Assembly: GCA_018303075.1 (NCBI GenBank)
Contig: JAGVYW010000007.1
Span: 1 to 32,467, forward strand
DNA: 32,467 nt
Origin: Candidatus Woesearchaeota archaeon
GTDB taxonomy: Archaea > Nanobdellota > Nanobdellia > Woesearchaeales > DSVV01
Reading direction: 5' to 3'
The notes below the pieces were generated by a model. The model searched no databases and was not told where the DNA came from. It worked only from the letters and a program-made list of their open reading frames with translations. A program made the translations under genes and the position numbers. Shown here in pieces: positions 7,766 through 32,419 of the stretch (its first letter is position 1; each line of letters begins with the position of its first letter).

Positions 7766-7802
7766 TTGATGGAAAAATTTGAAAGATGAAATCTTTTTAT
7801 TC

Positions 7803-7907
7803 AAAAAAAATGGGTATAATACTCCGCAGCTCTGCTGCAACCAATTTTTAAGAATAAAAATCCCTCACTTTGTATTAAATACCCCGCAACTCTGCTGCGA
7901 TTGGGAT
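7803..7907 (+). repeat. Composite palindromic repeat, copy A
   Basis: One of three copies (others 19701-19795 and 29515-29604). Two palindromic modules sit side by side. The first has AAAAATGGGT / ACC(A)ATTTTT arms around CGCAGC-TCT-GCTGC. The second has TAAAAATCCC and ...GGGAT arms around CCCCGCAACTCTGCTGCG. This copy is the most diverged, lies between two minus-strand genes and contains no gene. The GC-rich cores stand out from the AT-rich surroundings. Confidence 0.8.
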
Positions 7908-19696: not shown

Positions 19697-20329
19697 TTAA
19701 GTAAAAATCCCAATCGCAGCAAGCTGCGGGGCATTCAATAACAAAAAAGGGATTTTTACTCTTAAAAATGGGTCGCAGCAGAGCTGCGGGGTATTTGAAA
19801 TCATAAGTATTCCTAAAAAAAGATAAACATAAATAAATATATTGTTGAGGGGTATTGAAAGATACAATGTAACAAGATATATTAATGGAATCACAATACC
19901 ACTTGTAGTGATTGGAATTCCTATAAAATATCTTAATTCTAGTATGTTAAATCGTGCTAATCGTAATACACCGCATAGAGTAAAGAAAATTAGTATAATA
20001 ATGCTGTAAATGTTCTGAAGACCATGCATATATCCAAATATTGCTGGAGCAACACCAAAGGAGACTGCATCACTTAATGAGTCAAGATTCTTCCCTAATG
20101 CATTTTGTTTTTGTGAGAATATTGCGATTTTTCCGTCAAGGAAGTCAAACAAAACTGCAGCTAGCAATGCGATTGCTGCATAAGTGAATTCTTTTTGTAT
20201 TGAAAATAAAATTGAAAGCATTCCTGCAGCTGCATTTGATAATGTAAAAAAGTCTGCTAGTTTGATTAGTTTATGAATTCTAACTTCTTGTTGATTCTGT
20301 ATTTTCTTTGATTCTATTTTACTTCTCAT
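19697..20329 (-). CDS. Archaetidylserine synthase (CDP-alcohol transferase), repeat-derived C-terminus
   Basis: 210 residues. Exchanges CMP of CDP-archaeol for serine. The CDP-alcohol motif reads DFLDGKIAIFSQKQNALGKN then LDSLSD, so the conserved Arg of DG-x2-AR is Ile. VSFGVAPA is characteristic of the PssA group. Residues ~179-210, beginning NTPQLCCDP, are encoded by the palindromic repeat at 19701-19795, which replaced the natural end of the last membrane helix. Located between the decarboxylase and the PAP2-like gene. The enzyme may be altered or still active; the catalytic Asp residues are intact. Confidence 0.9.
   Translation of the reverse strand: MRSKIESKKIQNQQEVRIHKLIKLADFFTLSNAAAGMLSILFSIQKEFTYAAIALLAAVLFDFLDGKIAIFSQKQNALGKNLDSLSDAVSFGVAPAIFGYMHGLQNIYSIIILIFFTLCGVLRLARFNILELRYFIGIPITTSGIVIPLIYLVTLYLSIPLNNIFIYVYLFLGILMISNTPQLCCDPFLRVKIPFLLLNAPQLAAIGIFT
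19701..19795 (-). repeat. Composite palindromic repeat, copy B
   Basis: Read on the minus strand it matches copy C almost base for base through module 1, linker and module 2. Module 2 is complete: GTAAAAATCCC and GGGATTTTTAC arms (11 bp) around CGCAGC-TT-GCTGCG. Module 1 lacks its outer left arm, where the archaetidylserine synthase sequence joins. The element supplies coding sequence in frame; the stop TAA comes just after it. Confidence 0.85.
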
Positions 20330-27096: not shown

Positions 27097-28275
27097 TTAC
27101 AGGAATTCAATCTCCACTTCAAAACCATCTTGTGTTGGATATTCCTCGACAAGCGCTGGAATAAGATTACTGTTGTATTTTTTTATTTTATCTGCATATT
27201 GTTTTGCACTGCTTCTTGGAATGATTAAACGGCATTTGTTAATATCAACTATTATCTCTTTTTCAGTGAGTGTCAAAAATTCTAGCAGCTCTTTGCGAAC
27301 AATTATCAGCTTCTCTAAAAGATAATTTCTGTCAGCATTTTTTAATTTCTCTTTATAGTTGAATCCTGGTGCAAGCTCTTTGAGATAAATGCAGCATCGC
27401 AGCAGAGTTCCATCTTCAGTTCTTTCGTCAAATGGAAGTGCAACATTTTTTGCCCGTATCTGTAATCTTTTCCTGATTTGTACACTATCTTTTAATTTTG
27501 CAGTGCAAAAATGAGCAGCTAATCCTTTCTGTCTGGTATATTCAAGTATCTTCATTGCCATCTCTTTGCTTCCTTTTACACCATAACTAATATTATCTTT
27601 TGTTTTAAATCCTTTTAATGGCAATGTATAATGTTTTGTTCCTGTATCTGAGAGTTCAAGCTCATTAAGATTAATGAATGATACTTTATCTGCGATATAG
27701 TCTATCAGTTTCATTGTCTTTTTTTCATAACCAGGAATTGCAGGGATTTCTATTCCAATATTCCAGTTAAACTGTTTTGCAATTTCAATCCTATTCCATA
27801 GAGAATCATCATCCAAATCTGGGTGAAATCGTATCTCATCAAGTCCTGTATTATATAATTGCTGTAATTTTTCTTTTGATACAAGTTTTAATGGAGTATA
27901 TAAGTGGATATGAAATCTTTTTCCAAACTTATCTTTTAATAATTTTATATAATTGCAGCATCTGTCTAGATTCGTCAGTGGATCTCCGCCAGTAATTCCA
28001 GCGCCTTTTGCCTGTGTTAATTCTGCTTCTTTTATTAATTCTATAGGATTGTTTGGATCTTCTAGTTTCCATTCATTAGCATAGACAACATCATTGCCGA
28101 ACTTCTGTTCTCCAACAGGGCAATAAAAACATCTTTGCGGGCATAATCCTGTAATAAATAACACTAATTTTCTTCCTTGCACGCAATATGCGCAGCCTTT
28201 TGCAATATTTCCAGTACACCATGAATGCCATGGGGTTTTGTTTATCTTCAGTATTTTCGTATTCATTTTGTTCAT
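27097..28275 (-). CDS. Radical SAM protein with extra N-terminal Cys motif (COG2108-like)
   Basis: 392 residues from the ATG at 28275, 30 bases after a TATA-like ATTTAAATTT; a TTG at 28296 is a weaker start. Cys45, Cys49 and Cys52 (CPQRCFYC) bind the radical SAM cluster. Upstream Cys20, Cys28 and Cys31 (WCTGNIAKGCAYC) form a second set. This arrangement and GITGGDPL match uncharacterised archaeal proteins related to pyruvate formate-lyase activating enzyme. The C-terminal ~100 residues are a separate alpha/beta region. Convergent with the cassette; function unknown. Confidence 0.83.
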   Translation of the reverse strand: MNKMNTKILKINKTPWHSWCTGNIAKGCAYCVQGRKLVLFITGLCPQRCFYCPVGEQKFGNDVVYANEWKLEDPNNPIELIKEAELTQAKGAGITGGDPLTNLDRCCNYIKLLKDKFGKRFHIHLYTPLKLVSKEKLQQLYNTGLDEIRFHPDLDDDSLWNRIEIAKQFNWNIGIEIPAIPGYEKKTMKLIDYIADKVSFINLNELELSDTGTKHYTLPLKGFKTKDNISYGVKGSKEMAMKILEYTRQKGLAAHFCTAKLKDSVQIRKRLQIRAKNVALPFDERTEDGTLLRCCIYLKELAPGFNYKEKLKNADRNYLLEKLIIVRKELLEFLTLTEKEIIVDINKCRLIIPRSSAKQYADKIKKYNSNLIPALVEEYPTQDGFEVEIEFL

Positions 28276-28300
28276 ACAGAAAATACTATTTATCAAGTAG

Positions 28301-28329: not shown

Positions 28330-28665
28330 TTATGGTTTGTAATTTGTGATATGATAACAACTATTCATGAATTGTCCTTCATATTCAATTGATTTTACTT
28401 TGTCGCCAATATTTAAGCTTTCAATGAATTTGTCTGGTCCAAAAAGCGGCGCTTTAAAGCCATCTACAATAATTGCACTTCTGTAATCAGCATAACTTCC
28501 TGCATTTGGACTTATACCGTTAAAAATATCACATTCTGTTTTTCGTACAACAGTTGCATCATTAATCTCTCCTGTACTGCATGATTTTACTATTGAAGCT
28601 CCTGTAAAATAAAGAAGTATACTTGTTGCTATTGCAAGTACTATTGGTTTTGGTTCTTTTTCCAT
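28330..28665 (-). CDS. Membrane-anchored or secreted small protein
   Basis: 111 residues. A Lys/Glu/Pro N-terminus precedes one hydrophobic segment (IVLAIATSILLYFTGASIV), and then Cys in VKSCSTGE. The remainder (ISPNAGSYADYRSAII, FIESLNIGDKVKSIEYEG) looks like a small beta-rich extracellular domain. Strong SD GGAGG precedes the ATG. It is the last gene of the minus-strand secreted-protein run but does not share the MLEKK start. Function unknown. Confidence 0.75.
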   Translation of the reverse strand: MEKEPKPIVLAIATSILLYFTGASIVKSCSTGEINDATVVRKTECDIFNGISPNAGSYADYRSAIIVDGFKAPLFGPDKFIESLNIGDKVKSIEYEGQFMNSCYHITNYKP

Positions 28666-28800
28666 TTCAAATAATTCCTCCTATAATCACAATGTCCAAA
28701 TATGCCATGAGCAACATTTAGTTTGTAGTAATCTGTTTGATGAGTGGAAGATATTAAGTATGTGTCCACAAGTGTTGAGAACAATCGTAGGTGTTTTTGT
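28666..28800 (-). other. 135-base gap with a 60-codon open frame lacking ATG
   Basis: Between two secreted-protein genes one minus-strand frame is open from within the preceding gene to a TAG inside the next gene. It reads plausibly in its middle (LVDTYLISSTHQTDYYKLNV). It has no ATG and no SD; GTG or TTG starts would be needed. It may be a gene remnant or chance. Confidence 0.25.
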
Positions 28801-29115
28801 TCAAATATACCAAAAGTCGTTTTTTAAAATATCGAAATCAGAATCTTCTAGATTTTCACATTCACAACTACAATCAGATTCAGGAGTGCCTTTTGGTTTT
28901 TTACATACATAAGATTCATTTGTTCCGCATTTTACGTCTTTGTAGTTGGATTCTGGATTAGAACATAGTTCATATTCTTCGTTGCATCCAACACTAGCCA
29001 ATGTAATTCCAACTGCAACAATAGCATTCCCAATATATTTCACAGTTGCAGACTTAACTCTATCAATCAATGAATTTTCATTAACTAATCTTACATATAG
29101 TTTTTTTTCTAACAT
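28801..29115 (-). CDS. Small secreted Cys-rich protein, MLEKK family (member 1)
   Basis: 104 residues from the ATG after AAAGGTGGGAAT. A ~27-residue polar start (MLEKKLYVRLVNENSLIDRV, KSATVKY) leads into a hydrophobic stretch and a lipobox-like SVGC. The mature part has about 8 Cys, including CSCEC near the end. Closely similar at the N-terminus to the genes ending at 29494 and 29996, so they are tandem paralogues. Likely exported and perhaps lipid-anchored. Mature function unknown. Confidence 0.78.
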   Translation of the reverse strand: MLEKKLYVRLVNENSLIDRVKSATVKYIGNAIVAVGITLASVGCNEEYELCSNPESNYKDVKCGTNESYVCKKPKGTPESDCSCECENLEDSDFDILKNDFWYI

Positions 29116-29152
29116 ATTCCCACCTTTGTTTATTTTTATTAATCTGATTAAT

Positions 29153-29494
29153 TTACCATTCCTTACCTGGTTCATCAGGAGTAGGATTATCTGACACACA
29201 ATGATATCCAGTTTTAGTTTCATCGTGTTTATTGGTATAAGTGTAAGACTCACAAGAATATCCTGGACTACATCCTGGTTCTGAATATCCTGTTGCTCTA
29301 TTTCCAACAGTGTGGGAACAACCTTCGCTAGATTCGCTTCCACCTCCACTTCCACATCCAGAATAAGATGCGCTTCCTAAAACAATTCCAACAGCAACTA
29401 CAGTATTTCTGGCATATTTCACAGTTGCAGACTTAACTCTATCAATCAATGAATTCTCATTTGCTAATTTTATATCTAATTTTTTTTCCAACAT
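29153..29494 (-). CDS. Small secreted Gly/Cys-rich protein, MLEKK family (member 2)
   Basis: 113 residues from the ATG at 29494 (SD GGGTGAG). N-terminal segment nearly identical to member 3: MLEKKLDIKLANENSLIDRV. The hydrophobic stretch ends at SGCGSGGG, and the mature chain has the Cys pairs GCSHTVG and GCSPGYSCES, ending in a polar, acidic tail. The first part of the gene and its upstream region (29433-29513) is an 81-base exact copy of 29935-30015, so the duplication is recent. Confidence 0.8.
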   Translation of the reverse strand: MLEKKLDIKLANENSLIDRVKSATVKYARNTVVAVGIVLGSASYSGCGSGGGSESSEGCSHTVGNRATGYSEPGCSPGYSCESYTYTNKHDETKTGYHCVSDNPTPDEPGKEW

Positions 29495-29498
29495 ATTC

Positions 29499-29654
29499 TC
29501 ACCCAAATTTATTCAAAAAAAATGGGTTTAATACCCCGCAGCTCTGCTGCGACCCATTTTTAAGAGTAAAAATCCCTTTTTTGTTATTGAATGCCCCGCA
29601 GCTTAGCAGACTCAAAGCTGTTAGAGCTGTAGCTATGCATGTTTTTATTTTCAT
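29499..29654 (-). CDS. 51-residue chimeric ORF: duplicated signal peptide + repeat-encoded tail
   Basis: The first ~16 codons (MKIKTCIATALTALSL) duplicate the start of the gene at 30017-30694, with SD TAGGTAG before the ATG. The rest, starting near LSCGAFNNKK, is read through palindromic repeat copy C and stops just before the next gene's ATG. The junction creates a LLSCG sequence resembling a lipobox. It is best seen as the remnant of a duplicated exported-protein gene whose body was replaced by the repeat. It may still be translated. Confidence 0.6.
   Translation of the reverse strand: MKIKTCIATALTALSLLSCGAFNNKKGIFTLKNGSQQSCGVLNPFFLNKFG
29515..29604 (+). repeat. Composite palindromic repeat, copy C
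   Basis: Module 1 is complete: AAAAATGGGT and ACCCATTTTT arms around CCGCAGC-TCT-GCTGCG. The linker AAGA leads into module 2 (GTAAAAATCCC...CCCCGCAGCTT), which stops before its distal arm, exactly where the duplicated exported-protein sequence begins (29605). It is nearly identical to copy B. Confidence 0.85.
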
Positions 29655-29657
29655 GAT
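29605..29657 (-). repeat. Duplicated gene start (copy of 30645-30697)
   Basis: 53 bases match 30645-30697 with about two differences, covering the ATG and signal-peptide codons of the exported beta-rich protein. Together with the exact 81-base copy 29433-29513/29935-30015 it shows that a two-gene unit was duplicated in tandem. Confidence 0.8.
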
Positions 29658-29684
29658 AATCTACCTAAACATATTTACAATTCA

Positions 29685-29996
29685 TTATTCAATATTAGGT
29701 GTGTAATAACAGGAGCAACAACTTAAATAATCAATACTTCCATGTTTAACAATACAATGAGATGCTTCATATTCACTAGCTGGCTTGCATCTACCTGAAG
29801 AACTTGCAGTTTCACAATAAAGTTCTATACAACATTCAGATTCTACATCTCCATTTTCTGATTCACATCCGACACTTCCAAATGCAATTCCTGCAGCTAA
29901 AACAGTTTTTCCAACATATTTTACAGCAGCTGCTTTAACTCTATCAATCAATGAATTCTCATTTGCTAATTTTATATCTAATTTTTTTTCCAACAT
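29685..29996 (-). CDS. Small secreted Cys-rich protein, MLEKK family (member 3)
   Basis: 103 residues. Same start as member 2 (MLEKKLDIKLANENSLIDRV), then a hydrophobic run ending at lipobox-like GSVGCESEN. The mature chain has Cys pairs (ECCIELYC) and a C-terminal SCCSCYY, comparable to CCWC in the gene at 30763 and CSCEC in member 1. SD GGTGAG precedes the ATG. It follows the beta-rich protein gene by 20 bases and is probably in the same mRNA. Confidence 0.8.
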   Translation of the reverse strand: MLEKKLDIKLANENSLIDRVKAAAVKYVGKTVLAAGIAFGSVGCESENGDVESECCIELYCETASSSGRCKPASEYEASHCIVKHGSIDYLSCCSCYYTPNIE

Positions 29997-30016
29997 ATTC
30001 TCACCCAAATTTATTT

Positions 30017-30694
30017 TTATTTTGTATAAGCTCCAACAAAAATGCCAGCTGTTAAACCAAGCTTTACATTTTCATCTCCTAATTCTGAAGATTCAAAATT
30101 AGCGCCAACTCCAAGTAATCCTTCACCTCTATAGCCTATCTTGAGAGATTGTCTGCTGGATTGATGTCCATCAATATTAACTATTGTTCGATTCTCGAAA
30201 TAAATCATTACAGATTTTTCGTTGGGAATATAACTTAATTCAGCTACAAACTCACCTGTAAAATTTTCACCAAGTATTACTTTTGCCCCTGCATAACTCT
30301 TAAAATAATCTTTTTCTCTTGAAAAAAAAACTCCGACTTTTGGAATCATCCATCCTTGTATATGCAGTTCACTTAAGATCCCAAAATTTTCTGCGAAGTT
30401 GAAATACATGCCATCTTCAATTGAAATTCTTGAACTTTCAACATAACCAAAATTATTTCTCATTGCAAACATTACATTTTCTGCAATCTTGGCATCAAGT
30501 CTCATCTCAAGATTAAGTTCAATTGGTGGAACATCGCTTCCACTGTTATAACTATATGGAGATGTATTCTTTATTTCATCTTCAAATTTATGATGATATC
30601 CTGCTCTAACTTCAAATGAATCTGCTTTAGCGGGGATGCTGTTCAGCAGATTCAAAGCTGTTAGAGCTGTAGCTATGTATGTTTTTATTTTCAT
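30017..30694 (-). CDS. Exported beta-strand-rich protein resembling a small outer-membrane barrel
   Basis: 225 residues. Clear signal peptide with predicted cleavage after AKA (22-24). The mature chain alternates polar and hydrophobic residues in many strand-sized blocks (FEVRAGYHHKF, ELNLEMRLDAKI, SLKIGYRGEGLLGVGANFES) and ends with KLGLTAGIFVGAYTK, like an outer-membrane barrel. Archaea of this type usually lack an outer membrane, so it may be a soluble beta protein, a cell-surface component or a transferred gene. SD GAGG upstream. Confidence 0.7.
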   Translation of the reverse strand: MKIKTYIATALTALNLLNSIPAKADSFEVRAGYHHKFEDEIKNTSPYSYNSGSDVPPIELNLEMRLDAKIAENVMFAMRNNFGYVESSRISIEDGMYFNFAENFGILSELHIQGWMIPKVGVFFSREKDYFKSYAGAKVILGENFTGEFVAELSYIPNEKSVMIYFENRTIVNIDGHQSSRQSLKIGYRGEGLLGVGANFESSELGDENVKLGLTAGIFVGAYTK

Positions 30695-30762
30695 GATAAT
30701 TAGCCTCGTTAATTATTATCCAAGAGGGCATCAATAAAAAAACTAATAATAATAATCAAACT

Positions 30763-31059
30763 TTAATCATCACACCAACAGCAGGTATAATCTTTTGATT
30801 CTCCTGTTTTATAACAACCATCTCTGCATCCATCAGCAGATAATGCACTTTCATAATAACCTAATTCTTTGTCTAGATTTCTAAGTGTAGTTCCTTTTTT
30901 TTCTTGACTTGCATAATCTGTTTTTAATGCAGAAGATCTATAATTCATTGAATTGCATGAGTCGTCTGTGCCATTTGAACATTTTCCTCCCATTAATACA
31001 CCAGTTGTTGCTAATGCTGCTAATCCAGTTACAATTTTTTTTGTTATATTTTCTAACAT
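30763..31059 (-). CDS. Small secreted Cys-rich protein
   Basis: 98 residues. MLENITKKIVTGLAALATTG forms a short signal-like helix ending at GGKCSNG. The mature part carries about 8 Cys and ends in YTCCWCDD, similar to SCCSCYY in member 3. The N-terminus is shorter than in the MLEKK members but keeps MLE. A strong SD (GGAGGGGAG) precedes the ATG. Not recognised as a known family. Confidence 0.75.
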   Translation of the reverse strand: MLENITKKIVTGLAALATTGVLMGGKCSNGTDDSCNSMNYRSSALKTDYASQEKKGTTLRNLDKELGYYESALSADGCRDGCYKTGESKDYTCCWCDD

Positions 31060-31080
31060 TTTTCTCCCCTCCTATTATTA

Positions 31081-31416
31081 TTAATTTTTTGGTACACATT
31101 CTTTATGTCCACTTTGGCCTTTATCCCTGTCGCTTCTATCTCTATCATATCCTCTATCATTCCAATCTTTGTCGAAAACGGATGATGATGAGCTAGATGA
31201 AGAGTTACTGGAGTAACTAGTCTTACTTGCGTTATATTTCTGAATAACTTCATAGCAAGGATGTCCAACTGGATAACTAACATTACTATGGCAATCATAC
31301 CAATCACCATTTTTTCCTTGTGTTGGAAAAATTGTTGATCCACATGATTCTACAACTGTAATTAATCCTAATGCTGCAATACCCTTAGATAATTTACTTA
31401 ATTGTTTTTCTAACAT
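31081..31416 (-). CDS. Small secreted protein with Ser run and charged tail
   Basis: 111 residues from the ATG at 31416 (SD AAAGGTG; a GTG three codons upstream lies within the SD). MLEKQLSKLSKGIAALGLIT leads to VESCGS, a weak lipobox. The mature part has a few Cys (DWYDCHSN, GHPCYEV), a ~10-residue Ser run, and an Arg/Asp-rich stretch (DWNDRGYDRDRSDRDKG). Likely secreted and partly disordered. Function unknown. Confidence 0.72.
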   Translation of the reverse strand: MLEKQLSKLSKGIAALGLITVVESCGSTIFPTQGKNGDWYDCHSNVSYPVGHPCYEVIQKYNASKTSYSSNSSSSSSSSVFDKDWNDRGYDRDRSDRDKGQSGHKECVPKN

Positions 31417-31495
31417 ATTATTCACCTTTTCAAAATATATTCTCTATACCTCTTTTGGCTTTCTGATTATTTCTCTGATGAATTATCTGAATCAA

Positions 31496-31903
31496 TTATT
31501 TTTGATAAACATCAAATCCTTTATTCGGATCTACTTTATCAAATCCCATTTTAATCTCCTGCCAATCGAATCCATTATAGATTGGCTTTCCATCAAATCC
31601 CATCTTCATTTCTTGTCCATCAAATCCACTGTAGATTTCTTTTCCGTCAAATCCCATTTTCATTTTTTGTCCATCGAATCCATTGTAGACTTTTCCATCA
31701 AAACCTTTATTTGGCTCTACTTTATCAAAACCCATCTTCATTTCATGTTCATCAAATCCATTGCTGATACCTGTTTGAGCTTGTGCACTTCTGCTCACAA
31801 ATTGCATTGCTGGTTCGTATGCAACAGGTACAACAGCTAATGACAATCCAATTACTGCACCGCCAATATATTTTTTTATTGAATTAATTTTGTTTTCTAA
31901 CAT
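31496..31903 (-). CDS. Secreted protein with ten GFD repeats
   Basis: 135 residues from the ATG at 31903 after GAGGTG (a GTG three codons upstream overlaps the SD). The signal region MLENKINSIKKYIGGAVIGL has a probable cleavage after SAQAQ. The mature part is almost wholly a tandem array of GFD units of 8-9 residues, alternating GFDGQEMKM-like and GFDGKPIYN-like forms, with GFDKVEPNK or GFDKVDPNK near both ends. No Cys. Could be a ligand- or surface-binding repeat. First gene of the minus-strand run. Confidence 0.78.
   Translation of the reverse strand: MLENKINSIKKYIGGAVIGLSLAVVPVAYEPAMQFVSRSAQAQTGISNGFDEHEMKMGFDKVEPNKGFDGKVYNGFDGQKMKMGFDGKEIYSGFDGQEMKMGFDGKPIYNGFDWQEIKMGFDKVDPNKGFDVYQK
31499..31759 (-). 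repeat. Tandem ~27-base repeat encoding GFD units
   Basis: Ten units, each 24-27 bases, in frame inside the first secreted-protein gene. Pairs of units form a ~54-base higher-order repeat (EMKM form then IYN form), typical of expansion by unequal recombination or slippage. Confidence 0.8.
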
Positions 31904-32013
31904 TTTATTCACCTCGAACTTTTATTCTGTTTAACACTTTGTCTAATCTATATCTTATTAGTCATATCAAATATAATAACTATCTTATCTAATATCTGAC
32001 AAAAAGCATAAAT

Positions 32014-32022
32014 TTTAAATAC
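32014..32022 (+). promoter_or_regulatory. TATA box of the truncated Lrp-like gene
   Basis: TTTAAATAC is centred 27 bases before the ATG at 32045, as in the tRNA-Gln promoter. It lies in the ~140-base divergent region shared with the secreted-protein run. Confidence 0.5.
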
Positions 32023-32044
32023 AATATATCATTTCCGTAGAATT

Positions 32045-32395
32045 ATGTTCAAGAACAAATTTATAGGTCAAGTAATGGAATATGATAAGTATGGAACTAA
32101 AAACTCAGAGGATTTCAAAATGAACCTTATAGATAGAAAGATTTTATATTTATTATGTTTAAATGGCAGAATCTCAAATACATGCATAGCTAAGAGATTA
32201 AGAATAAAGAGAGAAACAGTAAGCTACAGAATCAAAAGAATGTCTGATGAAAGTTTTTTACATGGTATAATGACTTTGCTTGACAACAGAAAACTTTGCA
32301 TCAAAAATTATCTCATCTACTTAAAGTTAAAGACAGTCTTGAATGAAAAAGAACTGTTAGACTTCTTATTTAAGCTGAGAATTCCACTAGTCTAG
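32045..32395 (+). CDS. Lrp/AsnC-like regulator, truncated after the HTH
   Basis: 116 residues if leaderless at 32045, or 91 from the ATG at 32120, which has SD GAGG and the usual MNLIDRKILYLL family start. HTH: DRKILYLLCLNGRIS, RLRIKRETVSYRIKRM. The AsnC effector domain starts (NYLIYLKLKTV) but stops at FKLRIPLV, inside a perfect inverted repeat. Compared with the regulator at 9410 it lacks most of the effector domain. It may be a pseudogene or a minimal DNA-binding protein. Divergent from the secreted-protein run, which it might control. Confidence 0.65.
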   Translation: MFKNKFIGQVMEYDKYGTKNSEDFKMNLIDRKILYLLCLNGRISNTCIAKRLRIKRETVSYRIKRMSDESFLHGIMTLLDNRKLCIKNYLIYLKLKTVLNEKELLDFLFKLRIPLV

Positions 32396-32419
32396 CGAAC
32401 GAAGTGAGCGGACTAGTGG
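32384..32419. repeat. Perfect inverted repeat interrupting the Lrp-like gene
   Basis: CCACTAGTC (32384-32392) and GACTAGTGG (32411-32419) enclose GCGAACGAAGTGAGC, which can fold with tandem G/A pairs and a GAA cap. It contains the stop codon of the Lrp-like frame. Could be a terminator or a small inserted hairpin element. Confidence 0.65.

What the first reader, a model, noticed from the sequence alone, without database searches (positions are those of the whole stretch)
28330..31903. Array of small secreted proteins sharing a long conserved N-terminal segment
Seven short exported ORFs lie head to tail. Three share MLEKK..ENSLIDRVK before the hydrophobic stretch, and three others keep MLE. 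Several have a lipobox-like Cys and C-terminal CCxC-type motifs, while the mature parts differ widely. Conserved leader plus variable Cys-rich cargo resembles a diversifying surface or effector system. A ~27-residue polar region ahead of the hydrophobic core is unusual for a signal peptide and may be a sorting tag.
Basis: partly seen in the sequence, partly recalled or inferred. Interest (0 to 1): 0.75.

Follow-up and report, generated by a model that had tools for sequence, protein, structure and literature searches.

The report
Shared-leader surface protein array in Woesearchaeota
A tiny uncultured archaeon carries a row of small exported, probably membrane-anchored proteins in which three unrelated cargoes wear almost the same export tag, and related archaea carry matching cargoes under different shared tags next to the same type of regulator gene, so the tag behaves as a swappable, genome-specific module.

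Summary
On the minus strand of a Woesearchaeota contig (31903-28330) lie seven small exported ORFs, plus a 225-aa exported protein (D) and a broken copy of it (F). E, G and H share a leader (66-77% identity, Z 27-30) but have unrelated mature parts (Z about 0). Each cargo has its own homologue in other Woesearchaeota: B Z 18, C 7, E 6-8, G 14, H 8, I 11. Those homologues carry different leaders, so the cargoes are old and the leader was made uniform afterwards. G is a nucleotide mosaic of E-like 5' and H-like 3' sequence. At least nine other Woesearchaeota loci, in several families, hold related islands; three more hold fragments or a single gene. Leaders there carry [NM][LI]Ex[KR] ahead of a hydrophobic core ending in Cys. 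All ten islands whose head is held start beside a divergent Lrp/AsnC-type regulator gene. Mature Cys numbers are mostly even, which fits disulfides. Best reading: a regulator-controlled island of surface proteins with exchangeable signal peptides, analogous to Borrelia Erp/Elp and Mycoplasma Vsp/Vpma lipoproteins but unrelated and archaeal. "Rapidly diversifying cargo" is not supported. A sorting role for the leader and lipidation are untested.

The parts
31496..31903 (-). A: exported 135-aa protein, MLENK start, AQA-type cleavage site, mature part of 13-residue GFDGQEMKMGFDGKxIYN-like repeats, no mature Cys
   Evidence: leader weakly matched by the multi-genome leader profile (E 0.012)
31081..31416 (-). 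B: 111-aa exported protein, Cys at end of hydrophobic core; cargo homologous to L114:4307 and L117:3423
   Evidence: Z 18-19, 0 of 2000 shuffles
30763..31059 (-). C: 98-aa exported Cys-rich protein; cargo homologous to L114:3985
   Evidence: Z 7.0
30017..30694 (-). D: 225-aa exported, probably beta-rich protein with relatives in other Woesearchaeota
   Evidence: single-sequence AlphaFold model too poor to use
29685..29996 (-). E: 103-aa exported Cys-rich protein with the shared leader; cargo homologous to L054:9082, L113:10338, L113:13953
29499..29654 (-). F: remnant of a D copy (first 63 nt 92% identical to D), interrupted by a dispersed repeat
29508..29604 (.). Copy of a dispersed twin-hairpin repeat (at least 13 copies in the genome) that breaks F
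29153..29494 (-). G: 113-aa exported Cys-rich protein with the shared leader (5' end like E, following part like H); cargo homologous to L114:9250
28801..29115 (-). H: 104-aa exported Cys-rich protein with the shared leader; cargo homologous to L120:6135
28330..28665 (-). I: 111-aa membrane-anchored protein of a family that recurs in the related islands
29865..29996 (-). Shared leader of E (44 codons to the Cys)
29354..29494 (-). Shared leader of G (47 codons to the Cys)
28984..29115 (-). Shared leader of H (44 codons to the Cys)
32045..32395 (+). Divergent Lrp/AsnC-type regulator gene, truncated after 116 codons; related to the intact 351-aa paralogue on contig C38 (L055:3755-4807)
31904..32044 (.). 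Divergent intergenic region; putative operator-like sites at about 31995-32005 (TCTGACAAAAA) and 32032-32043 (TTTCCGTAGAAT), both weak matches
   Evidence: motif chosen post hoc
32384..32419 (.). 36-nt palindromic repeat at the truncation point of the regulator, next to the contig end

Best explanation
This is an island of co-oriented, probably co-transcribed small exported proteins, headed by a divergent Lrp/AsnC-type regulator gene. Their signal peptides behave as a separate module. Shown by sequence: the leader of E, G and H is homogenised within the genome while the cargoes are old and separate families. Inferred: 5'-end recombination (gene conversion) copies one leader onto neighbouring genes; the long n-region with [NM][LI]Ex[KR] hands all cargoes to the same export or sorting step (Sec route); the Cys closing the hydrophobic core is lipid-modified; the mature part folds with disulfides on the outer face of the membrane; the regulator sets expression of the set. 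The likely use is a surface coat for contact with a host or neighbouring cells.
For: Leader against cargo: E/G/H leaders Z 27-30, mature parts Z -0.1 to 0.5; cargo homologues in other genera Z 6-19, mostly with unrelated leaders. The same incongruence occurs in G001 (L054:7610/7963/9082), in G004 and G294 (L114:4307/8939 leaders 80% identical, cargo Z -1.3; L117:3423) and in G295 (L152: MLEEKIE leader on three different proteins). Recombination: E and G differ at 1 of 63 leader nucleotides and 1 of 20 upstream nucleotides, then at 17 of the next 54; G matches E at 13 consecutive informative sites, then H at 6 (permutation p 0.018). Motif: 22 of 65 island exported proteins against 0 of 177 flank ORFs. 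Regulator: all ten islands whose head is held have a divergent Lrp-type gene, although loci were found by cargo or leader and not by the regulator. Disulfides and a special Cys: 37 of 45 proteins have an even number of Cys once the Cys at the end of the hydrophobic core is set aside (p 8e-6). Operator-like site in 8 of 11 divergent intergenic regions against a shuffle mean of 0.43.
Against: No localisation, lipidation or expression data. Most island proteins fail the strict PROSITE-like lipobox (12 of 48 pass). The motif and the operator were defined on the same sequences in which they were counted, and the proteins are related by descent, so those p-values are optimistic. The same-genus relative lacks the island beside the same radical SAM gene and has no match to the leader, E or I profiles, so it is dispensable. 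The window's regulator copy is truncated. One island (L054) has a different Lrp subtype. The archaeal lipidation machinery was not looked for.
Confidence: 0.6

Rival explanations
1. Plain tandem duplication: one exported gene was copied three times and its mature part then evolved very fast while the signal peptide stayed conserved.
For: E, G and H lie side by side; D-E and F-G look like a duplicated two-gene unit with matching 5' ends.
Against: E, G and H cargoes show no similarity to each other (Z about 0) but clear similarity to different proteins in other genera (Z 6-14), so they were separate families before the leader became common.
Confidence: 0.06
2. RiPP-type precursors: conserved leader, variable Cys-rich core, modified by an enzyme such as the neighbouring radical SAM protein.
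For: Leader and core logic; Cys-rich ends; radical SAM gene just downstream (27097-28296); an island in G004 (L114) holds a radical SAM-SPASM gene beside Tat-leader Cys/Pro-rich paralogues.
Against: The window's radical SAM gene stays in the same place in the same-genus relative that has no array. The leaders contain a hydrophobic export core and a closing Cys; no modifying enzyme is shared by the islands that were read.
Confidence: 0.1
3. Secreted antagonistic or nutrient-acquiring arsenal: the cargoes act on neighbouring cells as Cys-rich antimicrobial or enzyme factors rather than as a surface coat.
For: Related islands also carry an M15 D-Ala-D-Ala dipeptidase-like protein, a staphylococcal-nuclease-like protein, an M20/M28 peptidase, and VWA and MopE-type metal-binding proteins.
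Against: Most small proteins appear to stay membrane-anchored; no known toxin or defence family matches the window proteins.
Confidence: 0.2
4. The leader similarity is only a generic property of hydrophobic signal peptides.
For: Signal peptides converge in composition; weak profile hits (E 0.01-0.1) to many membrane proteins.
Against: The polar n-region itself is conserved at nucleotide level, and strong profile hits (E below 1e-5) fall in the islands and one further pair of leader-sharing exported genes.
Confidence: 0.02

Closest known systems
Borrelia Erp/Elp (OspE/F-related) lipoproteins
   Same: One leader (plus promoter) carried by lipoproteins with unrelated mature parts; reviewed as a single leader sequence joined to many independent origins by recombination (PMC10016077; PMC12018966).
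   Different: Bacterial, carried on cp32 prophage plasmids, with the promoter shared too; here a contig of an archaeon, a polycistronic-looking array, a divergent Lrp-type regulator, a long n-region motif, disulfide-type cargo; no sequence relation found.
Mycoplasma Vsp/Vpma variable lipoproteins
   Same: Conserved 5' untranslated region and signal peptide within a clustered multigene family, with divergent coding sequences beyond (PMC2268961).
   Different: Phase variation by an adjacent Xer1 recombinase; no recombinase seen among the window ORFs near the array, and cargoes are conserved between genera.
YSIRK/GXXS signal peptides of Gram-positive bacteria
   Same: A short motif in the signal peptide of a subset of diverse surface proteins that directs them to one export site (PMC5962339).
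   Different: Motif differs ([NM][LI]Ex[KR], roughly 20-40 residues before the core); no cell-wall anchor; location unknown.
Archaeal (haloarchaeal) lipobox proteins
   Same: Export with a Cys closing the hydrophobic core; AliA/AliB reported as crucial for lipidation in Haloferax (PMC12186497; PMC2945643).
   Different: Woesearchaeal sites often read G-x-Y-x-x-G-C and lie far from the N-terminus; lipidation not shown; AliA/AliB not searched for.

Membership tests
Borrelia Erp/Elp lipoproteins | Shared leader on unrelated mature sequences | tested here: met
   Leaders Z 27-30, cargo Z about 0
Borrelia Erp/Elp lipoproteins | Conserved promoter and operator in front of each gene or operon copy | tested here: not met
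   Identity ahead of E and G covers about 20 nt of short intergenic DNA only; one divergent promoter region heads the row
Borrelia Erp/Elp lipoproteins | Sequence homology to Erp proteins | tested here: not met
   No Pfam or NCBIfam family over its cut-off for any of the small proteins
Mycoplasma Vsp/Vpma | Adjacent site-specific recombinase and promoter switching | tested here: inconclusive
   No recombinase seen among the ORFs beside the array, but the contig ends 560 bp past it
YSIRK signal peptides | YSIRK/GXXS motif | tested here: not met
   Absent from all leaders listed
Archaeal lipobox proteins | Lipobox ending in Cys | tested here: inconclusive
   E and H fit a PROSITE-like pattern, B, C, G and I do not; 12 of 48 overall
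Archaeal lipobox proteins | Lipid on the Cys | not testable with these tools
   Needs mass spectrometry
RiPP precursors | Dedicated modifying enzyme travelling with the precursor | tested here: not met
   The radical SAM neighbour is conserved without the array in L035; not shared by the other islands read
RiPP precursors | Modified core peptide | not testable with these tools
   Needs mass spectrometry
Lrp/AsnC regulators (gene beside the islands) | AsnC-type HTH and ligand-binding domain | tested here: met
   PF13404/PF13412 (two matched stretches) and PF01037 in L120:7248-8306 and L055:3755-4807

The most novel reading that the evidence does not exclude
Woesearchaeota use a dedicated archaeal sorting signal: an extended signal peptide with [NM][LI]Ex[KR] that is read by its own export or sorting factor, is kept uniform within each genome by 5' gene conversion, and can be placed on new cargo, giving an exchangeable surface proteome under one Lrp-type switch.
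Probability: 0.3. Interest if true: 0.8.

Novelty: new variant of a known kind. Interest (0 to 1): 0.6.

Why it matters
How DPANN archaea attach to and interact with other cells is largely unknown, and their small secreted proteins have no annotation. This gives a recognisable marker (leader motif, divergent Lrp-type regulator, Cys-rich cargo families) for finding surface-protein islands in many Woesearchaeota genomes. It shows that leader-cargo exchange, known from bacterial surface lipoproteins, also occurs in archaea, and makes it testable whether an n-region motif acts as a sorting tag.

Tried and rejected
Leader profile in genome contigs and viral contigs: nothing, since those scans reach close relatives only. 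D in viral contigs: nothing. Pfam, NCBIfam, PHROGs and PADLOC for the small proteins: only chance-level hits. PDB sequence search with the I and E families: nothing convincing. AlphaFold single-sequence models of D and I: pLDDT 40 and 36, not used. The downstream radical SAM gene as part of the system: rejected, conserved without the array. First leader-profile hits in relatives at residues 15-38 (E 0.02-0.09): inside long frames, treated as chance.

Full report
What the window is. The window is one whole contig (C30, 32,467 bp) of a 1.24-Mb, 44-contig genome. A same-genus relative is labelled Candidatus Woesearchaeota (JACRKF010000021.1, radical SAM protein 78% identical, conserved gene order). 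That it is the same genus is inferred from this identity and gene order. The array lies on the minus strand from 31903 down to 28330 and ends 560 bp from the contig end.

Observation. Seven small exported ORFs (A, B, C, E, G, H, I) plus D and the D remnant F are all co-oriented with short spacers and ribosome-binding-like sequences. E, G and H share the leader MLEKKLxxxLxNENSLIDRVKxAxVKY; A, B and C start MLEN, MLEK and MLEN. Leader identity is 66-77% (Z 27-30), while the mature parts of E, G and H are no more alike than shuffled sequence (Z -0.1 to 0.5). Within this genome the leader profile and a start-site pattern find only E, G and H.

Relatives. E and I as queries hit the same small region of another genus in the family (G001, contig C33). 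It holds a row of small exported proteins whose shared leader is different (MAGNVQxQAKNVQVNLEQ...). Profiles then found further rows or members in G002, G330, G004, G005, G295, G294, G269, G157 and G290. The same-genus genome G006 has no match to the leader, E or I profiles, and the labelled same-genus record lacks the row at the syntenic place.

Cargo is old, leader is local. Mature parts were compared by local alignment against 2000 shuffles. B matches L114:4307 (Z 18.8) and L117:3423 (Z 18.2); C matches L114:3985 (Z 7.0); E matches L113:10338 (8.1), L054:9082 (6.1) and L113:13953 (6.0); G matches L114:9250 (13.2); H matches L120:6135 (7.5); I matches several (8-11) (repeats differ slightly). 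Leaders of these pairs are mostly unlike (Z 0.5-4.8). Leader sharing on unrelated cargo occurs again in G001, in G004/G294 and in G295. The last, L152, came from a leader-profile hit at a place not used to build the profile: MLEEKIE opens three exported proteins in a row, of 355, 198 and 103 aa.

How the leader spreads. E and G differ at 1 of 63 nt in codons 1-21 and at 1 of the 20 nt upstream, but at 17 of the next 54 nt. At sites where E and H differ, G follows E for 13 sites in a row and then H for 6, after which the pattern is mixed (permutation p 0.018). This fits recombination of the 5' end. Whether it is gene conversion or cargo replacement behind a fixed leader cannot be told from one genome.

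Leader anatomy. [NM][LI]Ex[KR] occurs in 22 of 65 hydrophobic-N-terminus proteins under 260 aa in the islands and in the first 45 residues of 0 of 177 flank ORFs. The motif was chosen on these proteins, and flank ORFs are mostly cytosolic, so this is description more than a test. The stretch up to the hydrophobic core varies in length and sequence. The core often ends G-x-Y-x-x-G-C. Only 12 of 48 Cys-ending leaders fit a PROSITE-like lipobox, and in 8 of those the Cys lies beyond residue 35, so standard predictors could miss them. Of 45 such proteins with mature Cys, 37 have an even number when the closing Cys is left out (p 8e-6 if independent). This fits disulfides plus one Cys with another role.

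Regulator. Ten islands have their head in the sequence held (window, L054, L112, L113, L114, L115, L118, L119, L120, L152). In all ten the gene divergent from the head is Lrp/AsnC-like. Nine are the roughly 350-aa type with two AsnC-type HTH stretches (Pfam on L120 and L055) or a truncated copy of it (window); L054 has another Lrp subtype. L116 and L117 end at contig ends and L121 is a single gene. An operator-like TTYTACRAAAANNCATAA occurs with up to 3 mismatches in 8 of 11 divergent regions (mean 0.43 in shuffles), post hoc; the window's own site has 4 mismatches, and L114 and L115 are close relatives. The window's own regulator is cut after 116 codons at a palindromic repeat (32384-32419); an intact paralogue lies on contig C38 near a second I-type gene.

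Neighbouring cargo in other islands. VWA with MopE-type motif, staphylococcal-nuclease-like, M20/M28 peptidase and M15 D-Ala-D-Ala dipeptidase-like proteins suggest a general extracellular set. The role in the window is inferred.

Comparison. The nearest described parallel is the Borrelia Erp/Elp family, reviewed as arising from a single leader sequence with mature parts of many independent origins (PMC10016077), with Elp proteins sharing leaders but having unrelated mature sequences (PMC12018966). Mycoplasma Vsp/Vpma share the 5' untranslated region and signal peptide (PMC2268961). YSIRK peptides show that a signal-peptide motif can direct localised secretion (PMC5962339). The window's system works like these in its architecture but is not a member of any. 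Paper searches on Woesearchaeota and DPANN with secreted, lipoprotein or signal-peptide terms returned no listed paper describing it; the library is partial.

Verdict. Real, recurrent and better explained as leader exchange over old cargo than as fast-diversifying cargo. Mechanism beyond sequence is inferred.

Noticed in passing
window 7796-7900, 19714-19795, 29508-29604; L002-L014: Dispersed twin-hairpin repeat of about 120 bp (GCAGCAGAGCTGCGGGGTATTAAACCCATTTTTTTTGAATAA end), at least 13 places in the genome, several overlapping gene ends; one copy replaces the C-terminus of a PssA-like gene (19697-20329) compared with the relative L035, another breaks F.
   Followed up: partly
L114:4999-8917: Four paralogues with a shared twin-arginine (RRDFLRKAGT-type) or related leader and Cys/Pro-rich ends beside a radical SAM-SPASM gene: a possible Tat-exported RiPP-like locus.
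   Followed up: no
window 30017-30694; L030-L034: D belongs to a thinly spread family of exported, probably beta-strand-rich proteins in Woesearchaeota, repeatedly encoded beside TrmB-like regulator genes; weak resemblance to a porin family (KdgM, E 0.14).
   Followed up: partly
L120:6428-7099: Archaeal exported M15 D-Ala-D-Ala dipeptidase-like protein (E 4e-38) in a related island, although archaea lack bacterial-type peptidoglycan.
   Followed up: no
L153:6356-7573: Two exported proteins in G278 share leader, Cys and the following tether (GDTIINNNYGSEDVEENG) and then differ, beside a possible toxin-antitoxin pair.
   Followed up: no
window 31496-31903: A is built of 13-residue GFDGQEMKMGFDGKxIYN-like repeats; no homologue was looked for by profile.
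   Followed up: no
L118:123-1154: A second Lrp-like gene of the same roughly 350-aa type a few kb from the island regulator; its own neighbours were not read.
   Followed up: no
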